The notes under the pieces were generated by a model. The model ran no database searches. It worked only from the letters and a program-made list of their open reading frames with translations, and was not told the DNA's origin. This document shows, one piece after another, positions 27,540 to 41,107 of a stretch of 64,000 nucleotides of DNA. The translations under genes and the position numbers were made by a program. This stretch comes from Nocardioides pocheonensis (GTDB lineage Bacteria; Actinomycetota; Actinomycetes; Propionibacteriales; Nocardioidaceae): NCBI RefSeq assembly GCF_003725535.1, contig NZ_RJSF01000003.1, positions 124,001-188,000 of the forward strand, in the 5' to 3' direction. Within the stretch, counting starts at the first letter, position 1. Each line of letters begins with the position of its first letter.

Positions 27540-30500
27540 ATGACCGACCTCCACCAGCCGCGCAACCCGGTCCGCCTGGTCACCGCCTCGAGCCTGTTCG
27601 ACGGTCACGACGCCTCGATCAACATCATGCGGCGGATCTTCCAGTCGCAGGGCGCGGAGGTGATCCACCTCGGGCACAACCGCTCGGTGCGCGAGGTCGT
27701 CGACGCGGCGCTGGAGGAGGACGTCCAGGGGGTCGCGATCTCGTCGTACCAGGGCGGGCACGTGGAGTACTTCGAGTACCTCGTCGAGTCGCTGCGCGAG
27801 CACGGTGCCGGTCACGTGCGCGTCGTCGGTGGGGGTGGCGGCGTCATCGTGCCCGACGAGATCGCCCGGCTCCGCAGCAGCGGGGTGACGATCTTCTCGC
27901 CCGAGGACGGCCAGCGCATGGGGCTGGTCGGGATGGTGAACTCCGTGGTCGCCGACTGCGACTTCGACCTGTGGGAGAGCGGCGCGGTCGGCGCCGAGGC
28001 CGTGCTCTCCGGTGACCGGACCGCGGTCGCCCGGGCGATCACCGGAGCCGAGCAGGGCTCGCTGCCCGCCGGGATGAGGGCGGAGCTGCACGCCGCGGCG
28101 CAGGCCCGGCGGGTGCCGGTGCTCGGCATCACCGGCACCGGCGGATCGGGCAAGTCGTCGCTGACCGACGAGCTGGTTCGCCGCTTCCGCGTCGACCAGC
28201 AGGACAAGCTCCGGATCGCGGTGATCGCGGTCGACCCGACCCGGCGCAGGGGCGGCGGCGCGCTGCTGGGCGACCGGATCCGGATGAACTCCCTCGACGG
28301 CGACCGGGTCTTCTTCCGCAGCCTGGCCACGCGGGGCGCGCGGGAGCTGCCCGAGCACTTGGCCGACGTGGTCGACGTGGTCAAGGCGGCCGGTTTCGAC
28401 CTGGTGGTCGTCGAGACCCCCGGCATCGGGCAGGGCGACGCGGCGATCGTGCCGTTCGTCGACACCGCGATGTACGTGATGACGCCCGAGTTCGGCGCCG
28501 CCTCGCAGCTGGAGAAGATCGACATGCTCGACTTCGCCGACACCGTCGCGATCAACAAGTTCGAGCGTCGCGGTGCCAAGGACGCGCTCCGCGACGTCGG
28601 CCGGCAGCTGGTCCGCAACCGCGGCGAGTTCGGCAAGCAGCCGGCCGACATGCCGGTCTTCGGCACCTCGGCGGCGACGTTCAACGACGACGGCGTGACC
28701 GCGCTCTACCAGCACCTGCGCGACCGGCTGGCCGGGCTCGGGCTCGAGGTGGGCGAGGGCACCCTCGCGCCCGTCGACGTCCGGCACTCCTCCGGGATCC
28801 GGCAGGTGGTGCCGGCCGAACGGGTGCGCTACCTGGCCGAGATCGCCGAGTCCGTGCGCGAGTACCACGCCGAGACCGAGCGCCTCGCGGACGCGGCTCG
28901 GCGGGCCCAGGCGTTCGATGTCGTCACCGCGGAGGTCGCGGCCGCAGGCTCGGACGACGGCGACGTGGTCTCGAGGCTTGCTGCGCTCGCACCTCGACCA
29001 CCGGAGTGGGTGCGCGACCAGCTCGACGGCTGGCCGGCCGTCGTGGCGGCGTACTCGGGCGACGAGCAGGTCGTCAAGGTCCGCGACAAGGAGATCCGCA
29101 CCGCGCTGACCCGTGAGTCGCTCTCGGGCAACAAGATCCCCCGGGTGGCGCTGCCGAGGTTCACCGACCACGGCGAGCTGGTGCGGTTCTGGCGCCGCGA
29201 GAACCTGCCCGGCTACTTCCCCTTCACCGCGGGGGTGTTCCCGTTCAAGCGCGACGGGGAGGACCCGGCACGCATGTTCGCCGGCGAGGGCGACCCCTTC
29301 CGGACCAACCGCCGGTTCAAGCTGCTCTCGGCCGACGGCGAGGCCACCCGGCTCTCCACCGCGTTCGACTCCGTCACGCTCTACGGGCGCGACCCCGACC
29401 TGCGCCCGGACATCTACGGCAAGGTCGGCACCTCGGGGGTCTCGGTCGCGACGCTGGCCGACATGAAGGCGCTGTACGACGGCTTCGACCTGGTCGCGCC
29501 GAGCACGAGCGTCTCGATGACCATCAACGGCCCGGCGCCGACCGTGCTGGCGTTCTTCCTCAACACCGTGATCGACCAGGCGGTGGCCACCTTCACCGAG
29601 AGCGAGGGCCGCCCGCCCTCGGACGCCGAGCGCGAGGAGCTCGCGGCGTACGCGCTGGCGCACGTGCGCGGCACGGTGCAGGCCGACATCCTCAAGGAGG
29701 ACCAGGGCCAGAACACCTGCCTGTTCTCGACGGAGTTCTCGCTGCGGATGATGGCCGACATCCAGGAGTGGTTCATCGCCCACCAGGTGCGGAACTTCTA
29801 CTCGGTCTCGATCTCCGGCTACCACATCGCCGAGGCCGGGGCGAACCCGATCAGCCAGCTCGCGTTCACGCTGGCCAACGGGTTCACCTACGTCGAGGCC
29901 TACCTCGCCCGGGGCATGGACATCGACGACTTCGCCCCGAACCTGTCGTTCTTCTTCTCCAACGGCATGGACCCCGAGTACTCCGTGCTCGGCCGCGTCG
30001 CCCGCCGGATCTGGGCGGTCGCGATGAAGGAGAAGTACGGCGCCAACGAGCGCTCGCAGAAGCTGAAGTACCACGTCCAGACGAGCGGCCGGTCGCTGCA
30101 CGCGCAGGAGATGGACTTCAACGACATCCGCACCACCCTGCAGGCCCTGATCGCGATCTACGACAACGCCAACAGCCTGCACACCAACGCCTTCGACGAG
30201 GCGGTCACGACCCCGAGCGAGGACTCGGTGCGCCGGGCCCTCGCGATCCAGCTGATCATCAACCGCGAATGGGGCCTGGCGATGAACGAGAACCCCCTGC
30301 AGGGGTCGTTCATCATCGACGAGCTCACCGACCTCGTGGAGACCGCCGTGCTCGCGGAGTTCGACGCGATCAACGAGCGCGGGGGCGTGCTCGGCGCGAT
30401 GGAGACCGGCTACCAGCGCGGCCGGATCCAGGACGAGTCGATGCTCTACGAGCACCGCAAGCACGACGGCAGCCTGCCGATCATCGGCGTCAACACCTTC

Positions 30501-30770
30501 CGCCGCCCCCGGGCCGAGGACGAGGAGCCGCAGAAGATCGAGCTCGCCCGCGCGACGGAGGAGGAGAAGGCCTCCCAGCTCGAGCGGCTGCAGTCCTTCC
30601 AGGCCGAGCACGCCGACGAGGCGGCCGCGGCGATCGCGCGGCTCAAGGAGGCGGCGGTCACCGACCAGAACGTCTTCGCGGTGCTCATGGAGGCCGCCCG
30701 CGTCTGCTCGCTGCAGCAGGTCACGGAGGCGTTCTTCGAGGTCGGCGGGCAGTACCGCCGTAACGTCTGA
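27540..30770 (+). CDS. icmF: Fused isobutyryl-CoA mutase
   Basis: A 1076-residue adenosylcobalamin mutase that interconverts isobutyryl-CoA and butyryl-CoA (some also isovaleryl/pivalyl-CoA). Domain order is as in IcmF. A B12-binding domain comes first, with 'DGHDAS' giving the base-off ligand His23. A MeaI-type GTPase chaperone follows, with the P-loop 'GTGGSGKSS' near 199, then the linker and the large substrate-binding barrel from about 560 to the end. AGGAC-containing repeats lie in the promoter and GGAAGA precedes the ATG. Residues about 477-490 in the linker are translated from a dispersed repeat. It links to branched acyl-CoA (valine) metabolism. Confidence 0.95.
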   Translation: MTDLHQPRNPVRLVTASSLFDGHDASINIMRRIFQSQGAEVIHLGHNRSVREVVDAALEEDVQGVAISSYQGGHVEYFEYLVESLREHGAGHVRVVGGGGGVIVPDEIARLRSSGVTIFSPEDGQRMGLVGMVNSVVADCDFDLWESGAVGAEAVLSGDRTAVARAITGAEQGSLPAGMRAELHAAAQARRVPVLGITGTGGSGKSSLTDELVRRFRVDQQDKLRIAVIAVDPTRRRGGGALLGDRIRMNSLDGDRVFFRSLATRGARELPEHLADVVDVVKAAGFDLVVVETPGIGQGDAAIVPFVDTAMYVMTPEFGAASQLEKIDMLDFADTVAINKFERRGAKDALRDVGRQLVRNRGEFGKQPADMPVFGTSAATFNDDGVTALYQHLRDRLAGLGLEVGEGTLAPVDVRHSSGIRQVVPAERVRYLAEIAESVREYHAETERLADAARRAQAFDVVTAEVAAAGSDDGDVVSRLAALAPRPPEWVRDQLDGWPAVVAAYSGDEQVVKVRDKEIRTALTRESLSGNKIPRVALPRFTDHGELVRFWRRENLPGYFPFTAGVFPFKRDGEDPARMFAGEGDPFRTNRRFKLLSADGEATRLSTAFDSVTLYGRDPDLRPDIYGKVGTSGVSVATLADMKALYDGFDLVAPSTSVSMTINGPAPTVLAFFLNTVIDQAVATFTESEGRPPSDAEREELAAYALAHVRGTVQADILKEDQGQNTCLFSTEFSLRMMADIQEWFIAHQVRNFYSVSISGYHIAEAGANPISQLAFTLANGFTYVEAYLARGMDIDDFAPNLSFFFSNGMDPEYSVLGRVARRIWAVAMKEKYGANERSQKLKYHVQTSGRSLHAQEMDFNDIRTTLQALIAIYDNANSLHTNAFDEAVTTPSEDSVRRALAIQLIINREWGLAMNENPLQGSFIIDELTDLVETAVLAEFDAINERGGVLGAMETGYQRGRIQDESMLYEHRKHDGSLPIIGVNTFRRPRAEDEEPQKIELARATEEEKASQLERLQSFQAEHADEAAAAIARLKEAAVTDQNVFAVLMEAARVCSLQQVTEAFFEVGGQYRRNV
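28968..29010 (+). repeat. Dispersed repeat copy inside icmF
   Basis: The stretch 'GTCTCGAGGCTTGCTGCGCT' followed by CGCACCTCGACCACCGGAG resembles one arm and the centre of the intergenic repeats at 25592-26024. It is read in frame as 'VVSRLAALAPRPPEW' within the linker between the GTPase and the mutase domains, a place tolerant of insertions. Confidence 0.55.
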
Positions 30771-30773
30771 GGG

Positions 30774-31532
30774 GTGCCCTCCCTGCGTGACGACCTCGAC
30801 CACCCGGTGGACCTGCCCGACCCGCCGCGCCGCCTGGTCTCGTTGGTGCCCTCGCTGACCGAGGCCGTCGCCGGCACCGGCCTGCTCGTGGGTGCGACCG
30901 ACTGGTGCACCCATCCCGCCGACCTCGAGGTGACCCGGGTCCGCGGCACCAAGAACCCGAACGTGAAGGCGATCGTCGACCTGCGGCCCGACCTGGTGCT
31001 CGCCAACAAGGAGGAGAACCGCGAGCTCGACGTACGCCGGCTCCGCGAGGCCGGTGTGCCGGTGTGGGTCACCGACATCGAGACCGTGCCGCAGTCGCTC
31101 CGATCCCTCGAGCGGATCTTCACCGAGGCGCTTCGGCGTGACGTGCCGGCGTGGCTCGTCGAGGCCGACCGGTCGTGGTCCGGCCCGATCCCGCCACCGG
31201 TGGCCCGGGTGGCCGTCCCGATCTGGCGCGACCCGTGGATGGTCGTCGGCAGCCACACCTTCACCGGTGACCTGGTCGCCCGCCTCGGCCTGCACAACGT
31301 GTTCGCCGACCCCGAGCACAACCCAGGGGGCGAGCGGTACCCGCACGTCGACCTGGCGGAGCTCGACCGCGACGACGTCGACCTGGTGCTGCTGCCCGAC
31401 GAGCCCTACGTGTTCACCGCGGAGGACGGTCCCGAGGCCTTCACCCGTACGCCGGTCCGGCTGGTCAGCGGCCGCCTGCTGACCTGGTACGGGCCGTCGC
31501 TGATCGAGGCACGTGAGCTCGTCCTGCGATGA
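30774..31532 (+). CDS. BtuF-like helical-backbone metal receptor, cytoplasmic
   Basis: A 252-residue protein with the fold of ABC-type cobalamin/siderophore binding proteins: 'RLVSLVPSLTEAVAGTGLLVG' at the start and 'NPNVKAIVDLRPDLVLANKEEN' as the second strand-helix unit. It has no signal peptide or lipobox, so it should stay in the cytoplasm. It starts (GTG) three bases after the icmF stop and is surely co-transcribed. An attractive inference is handling of cobalamin or another corrinoid for the mutase, but ligand residues cannot be assigned. The usual transporter genes (btuC/btuD) are absent. Confidence 0.78.
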   Translation: MPSLRDDLDHPVDLPDPPRRLVSLVPSLTEAVAGTGLLVGATDWCTHPADLEVTRVRGTKNPNVKAIVDLRPDLVLANKEENRELDVRRLREAGVPVWVTDIETVPQSLRSLERIFTEALRRDVPAWLVEADRSWSGPIPPPVARVAVPIWRDPWMVVGSHTFTGDLVARLGLHNVFADPEHNPGGERYPHVDLAELDRDDVDLVLLPDEPYVFTAEDGPEAFTRTPVRLVSGRLLTWYGPSLIEARELVLR

Positions 31533-33678: not shown

Positions 33679-34404
33679 TCAGGTGCGCGTCTGCGCGTCG
33701 TGGGCCGGCCGGATCAGCGGCGGGTGGAGGAGCTCTGCCGCCCCGCGCCGGTACAGCTGCGCGGGGCGCCCGCCGTCGCGCGTCGTGGTGGTGCCCGTGG
33801 GCTCGAGGAAGCCGGTGGCCCCGGTGGCCTTGCGGTGGAAGTTGCGGGCGTCCAGGGAGTCTCCCCAGACCACCTCGTAGACCCGGCGCAGCTCGGCGAC
33901 GGTGAACTCGGGACCGCAGAACGCTGCCGCGAGCGAGGTGTACTCGAGCTTGGAGCGCGCCCGCTCGAGCCCGTCGCCCAGGATCAGCTCGTGGTCGAAC
34001 GCGAGCCGGTCGTTCCCGGCGAGGGCGTCGACCGCCGGTGCCCACCGCGCTGCCGCCGCGTCGGACCCCGAGCGCGGCCCGGGGAGGTCGGGGGCGAGCG
34101 CGAGGTAGGCCACGCTGACGACCCGCATGCGCGGGTCGCGACGCGGGGCGCCGTACGTCGCCAGCTGCTCGACGTGGACGTCGTCGCGGGAGAGGCCGGT
34201 CTCCTCGTGCAGCTCGCGCGCCGCCGCCCGGTCGAGGTCCTCGTCCGGGCGGACGAATCCGCCCGGCAGGGCCCACCGCCCCTTGTACGGAGCCTCGCCG
34301 CGGCGGATCAGCAGCACGCACAGCTCGTCCGCACGGATCGTGAGGACGACCAGGTCGACGGTCACCGCGACCGCCGGGTACCGGGACGGGTCGTAGCCGC
34401 TCAT
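33679..34404 (-). CDS. NrtR-type Nudix regulator
   Basis: A 241-residue protein with an N-terminal Nudix domain and a C-terminal winged helix ('FTVAELRRVYEVVWGDSLDA', then 'NFHRKATGATGFLE'). That arrangement is the NrtR family, whose members bind ADP-ribose or related NAD products and control NAD genes. The Nudix box (residues 49-71) matches G-x5-E-x7-RE-x2-EE-x-G completely, so hydrolase activity is possible. It is divergent from an SPFH gene. Two 21-bp TTATCGTCA-type sites lie in the 87-bp gap, the natural operators. The neighbours include an NAD-kinase-like protein, consistent with a nucleotide-linked role. Confidence 0.88.
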   Translation of the reverse strand: MSGYDPSRYPAVAVTVDLVVLTIRADELCVLLIRRGEAPYKGRWALPGGFVRPDEDLDRAAARELHEETGLSRDDVHVEQLATYGAPRRDPRMRVVSVAYLALAPDLPGPRSGSDAAAARWAPAVDALAGNDRLAFDHELILGDGLERARSKLEYTSLAAAFCGPEFTVAELRRVYEVVWGDSLDARNFHRKATGATGFLEPTGTTTTRDGGRPAQLYRRGAAELLHPPLIRPAHDAQTRT

Positions 34405-34421
34405 GTCGCCACCCTATCTCT

Positions 34422-34476
34422 TTATCGTCATCTTGACGAGAACGAAGAAACGGAGTTATCGTCATAGCGACGATAA
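34422..34476. promoter_or_regulatory. Paired 21-bp operators in the Nudix/SPFH divergent promoter
   Basis: Site 2 (34456-34476) is TTATCGTC-N5-GACGATAA with perfect 8-bp arms. Site 1 (34422-34442) has the same left half TTATCGTCA and an imperfect right half TGACGAGAA. They lie 34 bp apart. Site 2 ends 15 bp before the SPFH ATG and site 1 starts 18 bp from the Nudix start, so one regulator could control both genes. Confidence 0.68.
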
Positions 34477-34491
34477 ATGGAGGTGGTCCCC

Positions 34492-35505
34492 ATGGCCGAC
34501 ATCACCCGCTACCCGTTCGTGCGACACCTGCGCGGCAGCACGACCATGCACGTCGAGCACGTGCGCAACGGCCGCGCCCTGCACGCGGGCACCGGCGCCT
34601 CGTTCTGGTTCCGCCCGCTCAGCGCGGTCCTCTCCGAGGTGCCGATGGACGACCGGGAGCTGCCGCTGCTGTTCCACGCCCGCACCGCCGACTTCCAGGA
34701 CGTGACCGTGCAGGCCACGGTGACGTTCCGGATGACCGACCCCTCGATCGCCACACGCCGCATCGACTTCTCGATCGACCCGGAGACCGGCCTGTGGCGC
34801 AGTGCGCCGCTGGACCAGGTGGCGGGCCTGCTGACGGAGACGGCCCAGCAGTACGCGATGGACATGCTGGCGCTCGTCGACCTGGCGCAGGCCCTGGCCG
34901 GCGGCGTCGGCCCGGTGCGCGACGCGATCAGTGACGGCCTCGCCCACGACGGCCGGCTGGTCGACATCGGCATCGCGGTCGTCGGGGTGCGCGTCGTGGC
35001 CTTGCGCCCGGAGCCCGAGGTCGAGAAGGCGCTGCGCACGCCGACCCGCGAGCAGGTGCAGCAGGAGGCGGACAAGGCGACCTACGAGCGCCGCGCGGTC
35101 GCGGTCGAGCGGGAGCGGGCGATCGGCGAGAACGAGCTGCAGACCCAGATCGAGCTGGCCCGCCGGGAGGAGCAGCTGGTCGCGCAGCGCGGGGCGAACG
35201 CGCGCCGGGAGGCCGAGGAGAGGGCGGCGGCCAACCGGATCGCCACCGAGGCCGAGGCCCAGCGCGCGCAGCGCCTCGCCGAGGCACAGGCCGAGGGGAC
35301 CCGTGTCACCGGACTCGCCGAGGGCGACGCCGAGGCGGCGCGGCTCGCGGCGTACCGGGACCTGCCCGAGGCGATCCTGCTCGGGCTGGCGCTCAAGGAG
35401 CTCGCCTCGAACCTGCCCAGCATCAACAGCCTGGTGCTCACGCCCGACCTCCTCGCGCCCGTGCTCGCGCGGCTCGGGACCACGTCGGAGGCGATCTCGT
35501 CATGA
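34492..35505 (+). CDS. SPFH/band-7 domain protein
   Basis: A 337-residue SPFH protein without a membrane helix. The SPFH core is residues about 5-190 ('HAGTGASFWFRPLSAVLSEVP', 'DFQDVTVQATVTFRMTDPSIA'). A charged coiled coil follows from about 195 to 290 (Glu/Arg/Ala rich), and then a short hydrophobic end ('EAILLGLALKELASNLPSINS'). SPFH proteins form large oligomers that organise membranes or sequester partners. I chose ATG 34492 with GGAGGTGG at 34479-34486; an in-frame ATG at 34477 lies within the operator edge. The stop overlaps the next gene (ATGA), so the NAD-kinase-like protein is its likely partner. Confidence 0.88.
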   Translation: MADITRYPFVRHLRGSTTMHVEHVRNGRALHAGTGASFWFRPLSAVLSEVPMDDRELPLLFHARTADFQDVTVQATVTFRMTDPSIATRRIDFSIDPETGLWRSAPLDQVAGLLTETAQQYAMDMLALVDLAQALAGGVGPVRDAISDGLAHDGRLVDIGIAVVGVRVVALRPEPEVEKALRTPTREQVQQEADKATYERRAVAVERERAIGENELQTQIELARREEQLVAQRGANARREAEERAAANRIATEAEAQRAQRLAEAQAEGTRVTGLAEGDAEAARLAAYRDLPEAILLGLALKELASNLPSINSLVLTPDLLAPVLARLGTTSEAISS

Positions 35506-36383
35506 GCACGCTGCCTCCGCGCGCGGTCGTCGTGCACCGGCGCACCGAGCTCGAGGAGCTGGTCGCGCGCCACGGGACCAAGGGACAGGCGGAGTTCTTC
35601 CTTTCCACCCGGGAGCGCAGCATCGAGGAGCTCGAGGAGCGCCACCGCGCGAACCAGCGTGCGCTCGACGCCGTGGCCGCCGCGATCCCGCCCGACTGGC
35701 GGTCCGGCCGGGTGGAGCGCGCCGACCTGGACCGGTTCCTGTTCGCGCCCGAGGACGTGGTCGTCGTCGTCGGGCAGGACGGCCTGGTCGCCAACGTCGC
35801 GAAGAACCTCTCCGGACAGCCTGTCGTCGGGATCGACCCCGAGCCCGACCGCAACCCCGGTGTCCTGGTCACGCACCCGCCGACGGCGACCGCCGAGCTG
35901 CTCCGCACGCTGTCGGTCGCCCAGCGCCGGACCATGGTGGCGGCCACCGCCGACGACGGTCAGGAGCTGGTCGCGCTCAACGAGGTGTACGTCGGCCAGC
36001 CCAGCCACCAGACCGCCCGGTACGCGATCCGGCCACCGGAAGGCACGCGCGAGCGCCAGGCCTCGTCCGGGATCATCGTGGCCACCGGCACGGGCGCCAC
36101 GGGGTGGTGCCGGTCGACCTGGCTCGAGCGGCACAGCCACCTCGTGCTCCCTGCTCCGGAGGAGCAGCGGCTCGCCTGGTTCGTCCGCGAGGCGTGGCCC
36201 TCGCCCGCGACCGGGACCGAGCTGACCGAGGGTGAGCTCGTCGACGGCCGGCTGCAGGTCGACGTCGAGGCCGACGGCCTGGTCGCGTTCGGCGACGGGA
36301 TGGAGGACGACCGACTCGTCCTCAGCTGGGGCCAGACGCTGACCATCGGCGTCGCCCGGCAGACGCTGTGCCTGGTCGGGTAG
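35502..36383 (+). CDS. NAD-kinase-like protein
   Basis: A 293-residue protein that aligns in motif order with NAD kinases. It has 'VVVVVGQDGLVANVA' (the GGDG site, here GQDG, residues 91-94), 'LNEVYVG' in place of the NE motif and 'GIIVATGTGATGW', close to the 'TPTGSTAY' loop. The changes in GGDG and the loop mean catalysis is not certain, and it may bind NAD without phosphorylating it. The N-terminal 80 residues are helical and unlike housekeeping enzymes. The ATG overlaps the SPFH stop. Together with the NrtR-type regulator this is a three-gene NAD-linked cassette. It is unlikely to be the housekeeping NAD kinase. Confidence 0.8.
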   Translation: MSTLPPRAVVVHRRTELEELVARHGTKGQAEFFLSTRERSIEELEERHRANQRALDAVAAAIPPDWRSGRVERADLDRFLFAPEDVVVVVGQDGLVANVAKNLSGQPVVGIDPEPDRNPGVLVTHPPTATAELLRTLSVAQRRTMVAATADDGQELVALNEVYVGQPSHQTARYAIRPPEGTRERQASSGIIVATGTGATGWCRSTWLERHSHLVLPAPEEQRLAWFVREAWPSPATGTELTEGELVDGRLQVDVEADGLVAFGDGMEDDRLVLSWGQTLTIGVARQTLCLVG

Positions 36384-38166: not shown

Positions 38167-38511
38167 GTGGAGATCCTGGTGGGAACCGACCGGCAGGTCC
38201 CGGGACGTGAGGAGCTGCTGTCCTTCATCGGGTTCGAGGTCCTCGCCGGGCTCGGGCCGTGCGCCTCGCGGGTGAGCAACGTGCACGTGCACCTGTCCGC
38301 GGAGACCGGCGGCCGGATCGGTCCCGTCTCGATGCGCTGCCGGCTCGAGGTGCGACCCGAGGGGCACGAGCCGCTCGCGGTCATGCACCGCGCCCTGAGC
38401 AAGGACGACGCGGTGCGCGGCGCGGTCGGGGACATGCGCGGCGTGCTCGAGCGGATGTTCCGTCGCATCGACGCACACGGTGCGACCGAGACCACGCGCC
38501 GTTCGGCGTGA
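38167..38511 (+). CDS. HPF/RaiA-like ribosome-associated protein
   Basis: A 114-residue protein with the beta-alpha-beta-beta-beta-alpha pattern of the S30AE/HPF domain: 'EILVGTDRQVPGREELLSFI' then 'VSNVHVHLSAETGG' and 'MRCRLEVRPEGHEPLAVMHR', ending in a basic helix. It lacks the C-terminal dimerisation domain of long HPF, so it is of the short type. It is followed 24 bp later by a paralogue. It likely binds the ribosome and protects it in stasis or low oxygen. The translated N-terminus (ATG at 38167) is preceded by GGGAGAG. Confidence 0.72.
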   Translation: MEILVGTDRQVPGREELLSFIGFEVLAGLGPCASRVSNVHVHLSAETGGRIGPVSMRCRLEVRPEGHEPLAVMHRALSKDDAVRGAVGDMRGVLERMFRRIDAHGATETTRRSA

Positions 38512-38535
38512 GGGCCCCAACCGAGGAGGTGTGTC

Positions 38536-38895
38536 ATGGACGTCCAGGTCCGGACCGACTACCACGTGAACGGTGACGAAGGGCTGATCGCCCACGTCGA
38601 GGCCGAGGTCAGCAAGGGGCTCGAGCCGTTCGCGCGGCGGATCACCAGCGTGCAGGTCCACCTCACCGAGGAGAGCGGCGCCCGCAAGGGGCCGCCCGAG
38701 CTGCGCTGCGTGCTCGAGGTGCGCACGACCGGGCGCGCGCCCGTCGTGGTCACGCACCGGGCGACGACGAAGGACGCCCTGCTGCGCGGCGCGATCAGCG
38801 ACATGCGCACCGCCCTGGAGCGCACCTTCGGCCGCACCGACGCGCCCCACATCGGTGGCGACACGATCCGGCGGCCCGCGTCACCTCGTCGCTGA
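38536..38895 (+). CDS. HPF/RaiA-like protein (tandem paralogue)
   Basis: A 119-residue protein aligned end to end with its upstream neighbour ('ITSVQVHLTEESGARKGPPE' here against 'VSNVHVHLSAETGGRIGPVS' there; 'LRCVLEVRTTGRAPVVVTHR' against 'MRCRLEVRPEGHEPLAVMHR'). It has an extra basic C-terminal tail. GAGGAGG precedes the ATG. The pair arose by tandem duplication and has diverged strongly in the remaining residues, which suggests different roles, perhaps a heterodimer. Both are shorter than housekeeping HPF. Confidence 0.72.
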   Translation: MDVQVRTDYHVNGDEGLIAHVEAEVSKGLEPFARRITSVQVHLTEESGARKGPPELRCVLEVRTTGRAPVVVTHRATTKDALLRGAISDMRTALERTFGRTDAPHIGGDTIRRPASPRR

Positions 38896-39525: not shown

Positions 39526-39840
39526 TCAGACGCAGCCGTGCGGCTTGGGGAGGCCCGCGACGTACGCGAGCTTCTTGGCCGGCTTCTGCGGGAACAGCAC
39601 GAACAGCTGCTTGGTGGGGATGCCGCCGACCGTGCTGATCCGGCGCAGCGTGGCGGTCTCGCCCTGCGCGGCGTAGTCCTCGCGCAGGAACCGGATCGCC
39701 TTCCAGTGCTCGTCGGTGAGGTCGATGCCGATCTGCGCCGCGAGGGACTTCGCGAGGTCCTCGTCCCACTCGGACGGGTCGGTCAGGAACCCCTCCTCGT
39801 TCACGTGGACGGTGTGGCCGTCGATCGTGGTCGTGGTCAT
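39526..39840 (-). CDS. DsrC/TusE family sulfur relay protein
   Basis: A 104-residue DsrC-fold protein. It opens with 'VHVNEEGFLTDPSEWDEDLA' and ends 'GLPKPHGCV', with the reactive Cys at 103 as next-to-last residue. The second Cys that true DsrC proteins have about ten residues earlier is absent, so it is of the TusE/DsrC-like single-Cys kind, a persulfide carrier. It is encoded four bases after the SQR-like gene and before the DsrE-like gene. It probably accepts sulfur from one and delivers to the other. Confidence 0.88.
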   Translation of the reverse strand: MTTTTIDGHTVHVNEEGFLTDPSEWDEDLAKSLAAQIGIDLTDEHWKAIRFLREDYAAQGETATLRRISTVGGIPTKQLFVLFPQKPAKKLAYVAGLPKPHGCV

Positions 39841-39844
39841 GGCG

Positions 39845-41107
39845 TCATGCCTCCCTGCTGTCGGTGTTCGGTGCGTCGGGGACCTCTTTGCCCGCCATCG
39901 ACATGAGCGCGGGCAGCGGGATCGGGTGCCCGGGAAGCAGGACGTTCCAGTAGATGTGCCGGAACGCGAGCTTGCCGAGGTGGTTCGCGTGGGTCTCCTT
40001 GAGCAGGCTCATCGGCCCCACGTGCGGGATCGGGTACTTGCCGGGCAGTGGCTCCGTGTCGTAGTTGAAGTCGATCAGCAACGCCTTGTCGTCACCGGAC
40101 TCGACGAAGCAGTTCGCGTGGCCGTCGAACGCACCCGTCATCGGCAGCCCCGCCACGTGCTCGAGGAAGTTGTCCACGAAGACCTCGACCGCGAAGTGCG
40201 CGACCGAGCCCGCCTTGGACGCCGGGATGTTGCTCGCGTCACCGATCGCGAAGATCGTGTCGTACGCCGTCGAGAGCAGCGTGTGCTTGTCGACCGGCAC
40301 GTAGTTGAGCTCGTCGCCGAGCCCCGAGCGGGCGACGAACTCGGCACCCATGTTGACCGGGACCGTGACGAGCAGGTCGAAGGGCACCTCGCGCTCGTCG
40401 TACGAGACCAGCACCTTGCGGTCCGGATCGACGCTCTCGACCATGAAGTCGGTCACCACCTCGACCTTGCGCTCCTCGAGCATGCCGCCCAGGTGCGCCG
40501 ACGCCACCGGCTTGGTGAACGTGCCGTCGAGCGGCGTGACGTAGGTGAGCTCGACCCGGTCGCGCAGGCCCTGCTCGCGCAGCCACGCCTCGGCGAGGAA
40601 GGTGAACTCCAGCGGCGCCACCGGGCACTTGATCGGCATCTCGCAGATGTGCACGACGAGGCGCCCGTGGTCGAAGTGGTCCAGGGCCTTCTCGAGTCCT
40701 GTTGCTCCCTCGAGGGTGTAGAAGTCGAAGACGCTCTTGTGCCACTCCGACCCGAGCATGCCGGGCGTCTGGTCCGGTCGCGGGGACGTGCCCGTCGCGA
40801 TCACCAGGTAGTCGTAGTCGAGCTCGCGGCCGTCCTCGAGGTGGACGACCCGGTCGTCGGGGGAGACCCGGTCGATCTCGCCGTACACCAGCGTGACGCC
40901 GTCGGCGATGAAGTGGTGCCGGCTGCGGACGATCTCGTCGCTCTCGTAGGTGCCGAACGGCACGAACAGGAACCCGGGCTGGTAGGGGTGGTCGTCGTCG
41001 CGATCGACGACCGTGATCGTCCACTCGTCGCGGGGAAGCCGCTTGTGCAGCTTGTTCGCGACCATCGTGCCCGCGGTGCCGCCGCCGAGGATGAGCAGGG
41101 TGCGCAT
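39845..41107 (-). CDS. Sulfide:quinone oxidoreductase-like flavoprotein
   Basis: A 420-residue pyridine-nucleotide-disulfide-family flavoprotein with the FAD motif 'LLILGGGTAGTMVANKLHKRL', 'LVIATGTSPRPDQTPGM' and 'DTIFAIGDASNIPASKAGSVA'. A Cys lies at 'HICEMPIKCPVAPLEF' (two Cys, five apart), where SQR-type enzymes carry a redox pair. It would oxidise sulfide and pass electrons to quinone at the membrane. It is the first gene of the sulfur operon. The palindrome ATACCCC-GT-GGGGTAA lies 56 bp upstream. A different sulfur flavoprotein function is possible. Confidence 0.83.
   Translation of the reverse strand: MRTLLILGGGTAGTMVANKLHKRLPRDEWTITVVDRDDDHPYQPGFLFVPFGTYESDEIVRSRHHFIADGVTLVYGEIDRVSPDDRVVHLEDGRELDYDYLVIATGTSPRPDQTPGMLGSEWHKSVFDFYTLEGATGLEKALDHFDHGRLVVHICEMPIKCPVAPLEFTFLAEAWLREQGLRDRVELTYVTPLDGTFTKPVASAHLGGMLEERKVEVVTDFMVESVDPDRKVLVSYDEREVPFDLLVTVPVNMGAEFVARSGLGDELNYVPVDKHTLLSTAYDTIFAIGDASNIPASKAGSVAHFAVEVFVDNFLEHVAGLPMTGAFDGHANCFVESGDDKALLIDFNYDTEPLPGKYPIPHVGPMSLLKETHANHLGKLAFRHIYWNVLLPGHPIPLPALMSMAGKEVPDAPNTDSREA

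What the first reader, a model, noticed from the sequence alone, without database searches (positions are those of the whole stretch)
33679..36383. Nudix-regulator / SPFH / NAD-kinase-like cassette with matched operators
Seen: an NrtR-type protein with an intact Nudix box and a C-terminal winged helix is divergent from a co-translated SPFH plus NAD-kinase-like pair, with two 21-bp TTATCGTCA-type sites between. The kinase-like protein has GQDG for GGDG and a changed phosphate loop. Known: NrtR proteins sense NAD breakdown products such as ADP-ribose, and SPFH proteins form large membrane or soluble assemblies. Inference: an NAD-responsive unit in which the SPFH oligomer holds or gates a modified NAD kinase, perhaps for stress or phage defence. 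No NAD biosynthesis genes are here, unlike the usual NrtR targets.
Basis: partly seen in the sequence, partly recalled or inferred. Interest (0 to 1): 0.78.

Follow-up and report, generated by a model that had tools for sequence, protein, structure and literature searches.

The report
NrtR-switched SPFH and NAD-kinase-like pair
A dedicated NAD-related switch protein appears to control two always-paired genes, a scaffold protein and an unusual relative of the enzyme that turns NAD into NADP, in a compact unit shared by distantly related bacteria but, as far as we found, not yet described.

Summary
At 33679-36383 a Nudix + NrtR-winged-helix regulator is divergent from an SPFH gene and a kinase-like gene that overlap by ATGA. 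The kinase-like protein has the NAD-kinase fold (closest: human mitochondrial NADK2). It keeps the acceptor-site and catalytic residues but has GQDG for GGDG, a near-fixed signature (Q in 102 of 105 distinct loci). SPFH and kinase-like genes occur in the same 19 of 149 Nocardioidaceae genomes, always adjacent. The trio also occurs in alpha-, beta- and gammaproteobacteria; a spirochaete has the pair. Two operators lie side by side in 88 of 102 distinct loci (no shuffle gave this) and nowhere else in this genome. They enclose the operon's likely promoter: -35 in one operator, -10 in the other. In six Streptomyces-like genomes an NrtR-type gene lies elsewhere with such a site upstream; the one read is 71% identical to this regulator. 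Paralogous regulators sit beside NAD-synthesis, NAD-salvage and ADP-ribosylglycohydrolase genes. Best reading: an NAD/ADP-ribose-responsive repressor controls an SPFH assembly carrying a variant NAD kinase. The switch is well supported; complex and activity are inferred. Phage defence has no support here. I found no description in the open papers searched.

The parts
33679..34404 (-). NrtR-family repressor (Nudix domain + NrtR winged helix), 241 aa, intact Nudix box
   Evidence: Pfam NUDIX 1e-21, NrtR_WHD 3.2e-15; only NrtR_WHD match in the genome
34422..34442 (.). distal operator TTATCGTCATCTTGACGAGAA, 17/18 consensus positions
   Evidence: paired sites in 88 of 102 distinct loci
34433..34438 (+). 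predicted -35 box TTGACG of the SPFH operon, inside the distal operator
   Evidence: TTGAC at this place in 86 of 89 distal versus 13 of 89 proximal operators; 85 and 13 of 88 without the duplicate
34456..34476 (.). proximal operator TTATCGTCATAGCGACGATAA, 17/18 consensus positions
34457..34462 (+). predicted -10 box TATCGT, 18 bp after the -35, inside the proximal operator
   Evidence: TAnnnT at spacer 17 or 18 in 83 of the 86 loci with TTGAC
34479..34483 (+). GGAGG ribosome-binding site of the SPFH gene
   Evidence: read directly
34492..35505 (+). SPFH/Band 7 protein, 337 aa, no transmembrane segment seen, long C-terminal helix
   Evidence: Band_7 2.4e-9; AF2 mean pLDDT 86, helix 175-288; Foldseek top hit an SPFH (HflK/C) structure, E 4e-12; hydropathy
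35502..36383 (+). NAD-kinase-fold protein with GQDG in place of GGDG, 293 aa, ATGA overlap with the SPFH gene
   Evidence: AF2 mean pLDDT 93.6; Foldseek top hit human NADK2 E 3.6e-19; profile E 5.4e-18 to NADK2

Best explanation
This is a self-contained, NAD-linked switch and effector unit. The NrtR-type repressor binds two palindromes that cover the -35 and -10 boxes of the SPFH operon and lie just upstream of its own gene, so it represses the operon and probably itself. When its Nudix domain binds an NAD-derived ligand (ADP-ribose is the ligand reported for a studied relative, MsNrtR), it lets go. The two co-translated products are then made together. The SPFH protein forms a membrane-anchor-free oligomer, and the NAD-kinase-fold protein docks on it. 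That protein binds NAD(H) and most likely phosphorylates it with an altered phosphoryl-donor loop, changing NADP(H) supply when NAD is being broken down. Shown: gene order, pairing, operators, promoter-like boxes inside them, predicted fold and residue conservation. Inferred: DNA binding and repression, ligand, oligomer, physical complex, enzymatic activity and physiological role.
For: SPFH and kinase-like genes occur in the same 19 of 149 Nocardioidaceae genomes (strong hits) and are adjacent in all of them. SPFH lies beside the kinase-like gene in all 109 loci examined (105 distinct); in two, L079 and L102, the contig end cuts the SPFH gene. Their overlap is exactly 4 bp in 85 of 109 (81 of 105 distinct). 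Of nine plasmid stretches read out, seven have the trio: Providencia, two Rhizobium, Methylomonas, Moraxella (annotated), Cupriavidus and Proteus (tblastn). Twin operators: 89 of 103 loci, 0 of 4,120 shuffles; only two sites in the genome; no side-by-side pair in the 16 of 18 cassette-free same-genus genomes that I searched. Promoter boxes inside the operators. An NrtR_WHD gene lies elsewhere with such a site upstream in 6 genomes, five of unnamed genus g4 (Streptomyces-like, inferred) and one Kitasatospora; the one read out, L164, is 71% identical to this regulator. NrtR paralogues sit beside NadA, QPRTase, NMN transporter, ADP-ribosylglycohydrolase, NAPRTase and NAD synthase genes. NAD-kinase fold. 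Residues aligned with the essential Asp85, Asn159, Glu160 and Thr200 of M. tuberculosis NAD kinase are kept, with Trp for Tyr202 (essential set from passages of PMC8553519). Pairwise distances of the three proteins over 59 loci correlate at r about 0.95.
Against: No binding, expression or activity data. The second Gly of the GGDG motif, described as conserved in NAD kinases, is Gln, so catalysis may be lost. Nine Nocardioidaceae genomes of one genus have the pair with neither adjacent NrtR nor operators, and L096, L101, L111, L112 and L129 lack a good operator pair, so NrtR control is not universal; the Treponema and Roseomonas pairs show no NrtR relative within the stretch read. Some other genomes have more site matches than the pair (0 to 9 per genome over 36 genomes), so the regulon is not always this small. 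The Nudix box is degenerate in 5 of 5 proteobacterial regulators checked, so ligand hydrolysis cannot be essential to the conserved function. The correlated distances partly reflect shared ancestry.
Confidence: 0.55

Rival explanations
1. The kinase-like protein is a pseudokinase: it binds NAD(P)(H) as a sensor and controls assembly or partner binding of the SPFH oligomer, without transferring phosphate.
For: GQDG is near-fixed (Q in 106 of 109 loci; also in Rhizobium, Providencia, Treponema, Methylomonas, Moraxella, Roseomonas and Cupriavidus), and the residue after the motif is Leu rather than Thr/Ser/Asn. Score to Pfam NAD_kinase is below cut-off (14.7 versus 25.5 bits).
Against: The catalytic Asp, the NE/D motif and the Thr of conserved region II are kept; a pure sensor need not keep the catalytic base. 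Leu after GGDG occurs in alphaproteobacterial NAD kinases (passage of PMC8553519).
Confidence: 0.3
2. It is an anti-phage system in which NAD breakdown induces the unit.
For: Patchy distribution (strong hits in 6 of 24 same-genus genomes), spread across phyla and presence on plasmids. Related NrtR regulators are proposed for ADP-ribosylglycohydrolase conflict systems (section 31 of PMC9503650).
Against: No PADLOC match for the SPFH protein or the 52 aligned kinase-like proteins; the regulator has one Nudix-region hit, PDC-S07 at 1.5e-6. No phage or confirmed viral-contig relatives. Among 127 neighbouring proteins from 32 of 80 loci, 98 PADLOC models matched at least one member but none more than 3 (no control set was run, so enrichment was not tested).
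Confidence: 0.08
3. The SPFH and kinase-like proteins work separately; they are merely co-regulated parts of an NAD regulon.
For: NrtR paralogues sit at dispersed NAD genes.
Against: Strict pairing, 4-bp overlap in 85 of 109 and adjacency across phyla even where NrtR is absent or unlinked point to a shared assembly.
Confidence: 0.2

Closest known systems
NrtR family of Nudix-related NAD regulators (e.g. MsNrtR of M. smegmatis; the solved NrtR-type protein 3gz5)
   Same: Nudix domain plus NrtR winged helix; palindromes between divergent genes; paralogues in related genomes sit at NAD genes
   Different: The target is an SPFH/kinase-like operon, not nadABC; two operators; operator TTATCGTCA-N3-TGACGATAA rather than GTTTTCGA-N7-TCGAAAAC; Nudix box intact, whereas MsNrtR's is changed at three residues and no hydrolase activity was detected (passages of PMC6800001)
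Human mitochondrial NAD kinase NADK2
   Same: Best sequence and fold match; same SSG and TGTG-x-x-W substrate loop
   Different: GQDG for GGDG; obligate neighbour of an SPFH protein; below Pfam NAD_kinase cut-off
HflK/C, stomatin, flotillin and other SPFH scaffolds; vault shoulder region
   Same: SPFH fold and long helix
   Different: No N-terminal membrane segment seen; paired with an NAD-kinase fold instead of a protease or NfeD (partners recalled)
NrtR-controlled ADP-ribosylglycohydrolase systems (PMC9503650)
   Same: NrtR-type Nudix regulator, NAD/ADP-ribose theme; seen here as paralogous loci L174 and L196
   Different: No SPFH or NAD-kinase component described (terms absent from the main text of that paper)

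Membership tests
NrtR regulators | N-terminal Nudix domain with C-terminal NrtR winged helix | tested here: met
   both over cut-off
NrtR regulators | palindromic operator between the regulator and its divergent target | tested here: met
   (sequence only; binding not tested)
NrtR regulators | NCBIfam equivalog NF050029 cut-off (ADPR-responsive repressor) | tested here: not met
   140.6 bits versus 400; the equivalog is narrower than the family
NrtR regulators | controls NAD synthesis or salvage genes | tested here: not met
   only two operator sites (up to 3 mismatches) in the genome, both here
NrtR regulators | ADP-ribose releases it from DNA | not testable with these tools
   needs binding assay
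NAD kinase | NAD-kinase fold | tested here: met
   of the 50 Foldseek rows listed, 46 are titled NAD or NADH kinase and 4 (2an1) 'putative kinase'; top 7r4l E 3.6e-19 (137 matches at E<=0.001 in all)
NAD kinase | GGDG motif | tested here: not met
   GQDG; the catalytic Asp is invariant, 109 of 109
NAD kinase | NE/D motif | tested here: met
   N160 109 of 109, E161 108 of 109, the other D; ND in six aligned proteobacterial sequences and Treponema, NE in Roseomonas
NAD kinase | conserved region II, Thr and aromatic residue | tested here: met
   T200 106 of 109, W202 109 of 109; the usual Tyr is Trp and the Asp of this region is Ser, as in NADK2
NAD kinase | Pfam PF01513 gathering score | tested here: not met
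   14.7 versus 25.5 bits
NAD kinase | converts NAD(H) to NADP(H) | not testable with these tools
   needs assay
SPFH / Band 7 | Band_7 domain over cut-off | tested here: met
   37.9 versus 23.6 bits
SPFH / Band 7 | N-terminal membrane anchor | tested here: not met
   highest 19-residue hydropathy 1.48, inside the SPFH domain (hydropathy only)
SPFH / Band 7 | forms ring or cage oligomers | not testable with these tools
   single-chain model only
Anti-phage defence system | match to a defence model | tested here: not met
   only PDC-S07 over the Nudix region of the regulator

The most novel reading that the evidence does not exclude
A previously undescribed NAD(P) homeostasis machine. A new, near-invariantly GQDG-bearing branch of the NAD-kinase fold, with a changed phosphoryl donor or a sensing role, is carried or enclosed by a soluble SPFH cage and switched on by NAD breakdown through a repressor sitting on both promoter boxes. 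The same machine has been kept in actinobacteria, three classes of proteobacteria and, without the regulator, a spirochaete.
Probability: 0.35. Interest if true: 0.82.

Novelty: new variant of a known kind. Interest (0 to 1): 0.64.

Why it matters
What SPFH proteins do for their partners in bacteria is a standing question, and here is an SPFH protein with one constant, small, assayable partner. The kinase-like proteins scanned here fall below the Pfam NAD-kinase cut-off (window; three others without any Pfam hit) and are mostly annotated 'hypothetical protein' or 'sugar kinase' in the plasmid records, so a possible second NAD(H)-phosphorylating or NAD-sensing protein may have gone unseen in many genomes. 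The regulator, its two operators and the likely promoter are defined to the base, which makes the ADP-ribose response directly testable.

Tried and rejected
Housekeeping NAD kinase: rejected; the canonical GGDGT enzyme is at G000:C49:95115; a second PF01513 hit in C43 was not pursued. Phage origin or defence: no support. Conserved fourth gene: none; beyond the trio and ORFs that I judged by eye to be shadow frames of it, the largest clusters are a short-chain dehydrogenase in 10 and a DinB-type polymerase in 9 of 80 loci (names by eye), and among 127 neighbours the commonest Pfam family is in 4. Cooperative binding as the reason for the 33/34- or 44/45-bp operator spacing: I first read it as helical phasing, but the embedded promoter explains it better; in the 44/45-bp group a separate TAnnnT box keeps the 17/18-bp spacer in 14 of 14. 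'Nudix hydrolysis resets the switch': weakened, since 5 of 5 proteobacterial regulators checked have a degenerate box. Rows dropped before counts: L050, L051 and L067 (duplicates of L006, L008, L010), L079 and L102 (cut upstream) and L117 (under 300 bases upstream) were left out of the 103; a fourth duplicate, L058 = L038, stayed in, hence 88 of 102 when removed. The 109 loci hold 105 distinct ones. Of the 26 of 396 phylum genomes with E<=0.001, 12 are strong family members; G282 is a divergent 39% relative and the other 13 I take, unchecked, as ordinary NAD kinases. G018 and G005 are weak hits and were not counted among the 19. E. coli: no match to the Proteus cassette DNA.
Full report
What is there. 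The window lies in a Nocardioidaceae-type actinobacterium (whole genome G000, contig C3; a same-genus genome, G010, is the record named Nocardioidaceae bacterium BIN47). At 33679-34404 on the minus strand is a 241-aa regulator with a Nudix domain and an NrtR winged helix. Divergent from it is an SPFH gene, 34492-35505. Its start is better placed at 34492 than at 34477 because the GGAGG site lies at 34479-34483. The SPFH stop overlaps the start of a 293-aa ORF, 35502-36383, by ATGA. Two 21-bp palindromic sites lie between the divergent genes.

The kinase-like protein. It scores below the Pfam NAD-kinase cut-off (14.7 versus 25.5 bits), but its nearest solved relative is human NADK2 (single sequence 1.3e-9; profile 5.4e-18). 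An AlphaFold2 model from 52 sequences has mean pLDDT 93.6. The 50 Foldseek rows listed are NAD(H) kinases or, for four rows, a 'putative kinase' (2an1); NADK2 is first (E 3.6e-19). Over 109 loci the motif is G-Q-D-G with Q in 106 and P in 3; the Asp, the Asn of NE, SSG, the GTG of TGTG and the Trp that replaces the usual Tyr are invariant. Without four duplicate loci the count is 102 of 105. GQDG is also present in Rhizobium, Providencia, Methylomonas, Moraxella, Treponema, Roseomonas and Cupriavidus. A review lists Asp85, Asn159, Glu160, Thr200 and Tyr202 of the M. tuberculosis enzyme as vital for activity (passages of PMC8553519). By my alignment the matching residues here are D93, N160, E161 (D in most proteobacterial members and Treponema; Roseomonas keeps E), T200 and W202, so the acceptor side and the catalytic base are kept while the second Gly of GGDG is not. 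This is not the housekeeping enzyme, which has GGDGT and lies on another contig.

The SPFH protein. Band_7 is over cut-off. The model (mean pLDDT 86, pTM 0.56) shows an N-terminal SPFH region and a helix from 175 to 288; Foldseek lists HflK/C, stomatin, flotillin, erlin, prohibitin and vault structures. The most hydrophobic 19-residue window scores 1.48 and lies within the SPFH domain, so no membrane anchor is evident.

How tightly the genes go together. In a sample of 149 Nocardioidaceae genomes, strong hits to the kinase-like protein (19) and to the SPFH protein (19) fall in the same genomes and are adjacent in each (one further weak hit in each search was set aside). In the own genus, 6 of 24 genomes have a strong hit, and in a phylum sample 12 of 396. 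Of 290 relatives found in the species-genome collection the best 80 were kept. With the loci from whole genomes, all 109 examined (105 distinct) have an SPFH gene next to the kinase-like gene, two of them cut by a contig end, and the overlap is exactly 4 bp in 85 of 109 (81 of 105). A complete adjacent regulator was extracted in 56 of the 80; one more, L060, is cut by the contig end. Plasmid records give 62 with relatives. Of the nine stretches read out, seven hold the trio: five as annotated (Providencia, R. binae, Methylomonas, Moraxella, R. etli) and two by tblastn (Cupriavidus, Proteus). Roseomonas and Treponema show the pair without an NrtR relative nearby. Pfam confirms NrtR_WHD in the Providencia, R. 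binae and Moraxella regulators, the three scanned. Some Chloroflexi MAG loci are as similar to the window as other actinobacteria are, so I do not count that phylum. Beyond the trio no gene recurs often: the largest clusters are in 10 and 9 of 80 loci, and the commonest Pfam family among 127 neighbours is in 4.

The switch. In 89 of 103 loci two copies of TTATCGTCA-N3-TGACGATAA (best at least 14, second at least 12 of 18 positions) lie side by side within 140 bp of the SPFH start; 4,120 dinucleotide shuffles gave none. Without one duplicate it is 88 of 102, with spacing 33 or 34 bp in 69, 44 or 45 bp in 14 and other values in 5. The reason for the spacing appears to be a promoter: TTGAC occurs at one fixed place in 86 of 89 distal operators but in 13 of 89 proximal ones, and a TAnnnT box follows 17 or 18 bp later in 83 of those 86. 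In the window the -35 is 34433-34438 and the -10 is 34457-34462. A repressor dimer on each operator would therefore cover both boxes. In the window's genome these are the only two such sites. Sixteen of the 18 cassette-free same-genus genomes were searched and none has a side-by-side pair; four of them have isolated matches at 3 mismatches. Elsewhere the count is not always two: over 36 genomes that carry the pair it runs from 0 to 9.

Unlinked regulators. Several named Streptomyces loci lack the neighbouring regulator but keep the operators. Six genomes, five of unnamed genus g4 (Streptomyces-like, inferred) and one Kitasatospora, carry an NrtR_WHD gene elsewhere with a TTATCGTCA-type site 550-565 bp upstream of the winged-helix match, that is, near the gene start. 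One was read out (L164): the site lies directly upstream and the product is 71% identical to the window's regulator. Regulator and operator thus stay matched when unlinked. Paralogous NrtR genes were found beside NadA, quinolinate phosphoribosyltransferase, an NMN transporter, ADP-ribosylglycohydrolases, nicotinate phosphoribosyltransferase and NAD synthase. Other relatives read out had no recognisable NAD gene next to them, so the tie to NAD holds for part of the family only.

Limits. Nine genomes of one Nocardioidaceae genus, and L096, L101, L111, L112 and L129, lack the operator pair. In actinobacterial and similar loci the Nudix box is canonical in 53 of 56 adjacent regulators, but it is degenerate in 5 of 5 proteobacterial ones checked. 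The loci are related to one another, so the counts are not independent events. DNA binding, ligand, complex and activity are untested. Pairwise distances over 59 loci correlate at 0.95 (0.84-0.89 without the proteobacteria), part of which is shared ancestry.

Literature. In the open library no paper holds SPFH together with NrtR or with NAD kinase: the two papers holding at least two of these terms lack SPFH, and the three-term searches returned none. Wider searches gave long lists of which at most 20 rows were shown; I judged by listings. The original NrtR regulon paper (Rodionov 2008, known from recall and a reference list) is not held, so earlier mention there cannot be excluded. MsNrtR differs in operator and Nudix box (passages of PMC6800001). 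Section 31 of PMC9503650, read in full, treats NrtR-type regulators of ADP-ribosylglycohydrolase systems; SPFH, flotillin and NAD kinase do not occur in its main text. Passages of PMC8553519, PMC6675116 and PMC12052686 on NAD kinases were seen.

Odds. The check changed counts and added Cupriavidus and Proteus to the trio; none of the probabilities was changed.

Noticed in passing
27540-31529: Large fused B12-binding / MeaB / methylmalonyl-CoA-mutase-type protein (IcmF-like, name recalled) followed directly by a small periplasmic-binding-fold protein.
   Followed up: partly
39529-41107: DsrC-like protein beside a pyridine-nucleotide-disulphide oxidoreductase-type flavoprotein on the minus strand: a small sulfur-relay-like cluster in an actinobacterium.
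   Followed up: partly
38167-38892: Two tandem small ORFs; the second is a borderline match to the S30AE ribosome-hibernation family (23.6 versus cut-off 23.7 bits); the first looks similar by eye but has no Pfam hit.
   Followed up: no
L186, L187: In Moraxella osloensis (plasmid) and a Proteus mirabilis record the unit lies beside tet(H) or tet(J); partial matches to the kinase-like gene also occur on small Pasteurellaceae and Psychrobacter plasmids. Described only.
   Followed up: no
L174, L196, L197: NrtR paralogues beside ADP-ribosylglycohydrolase genes (Pfam in L174 and L196, by eye in L197), with an NMN transporter and a NadR-like gene (by eye) in L174: apparent ADP-ribose regulons parallel to this one.
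   Followed up: partly
L195 (G016 contig 79): An NrtR with similar neighbours and operator to the unlinked regulator of L164, on a small contig of a same-genus genome: possible binning contamination or transfer.
   Followed up: no
L092, L108: SPFH ORFs end early at an in-frame stop in my extraction, which explains the two apparent gaps of 651 and 703 bp: pseudogene or sequencing error.
   Followed up: no
L023, L037 (G282): A divergent (39%) relative of the kinase-like protein, split over two frames.
   Followed up: no
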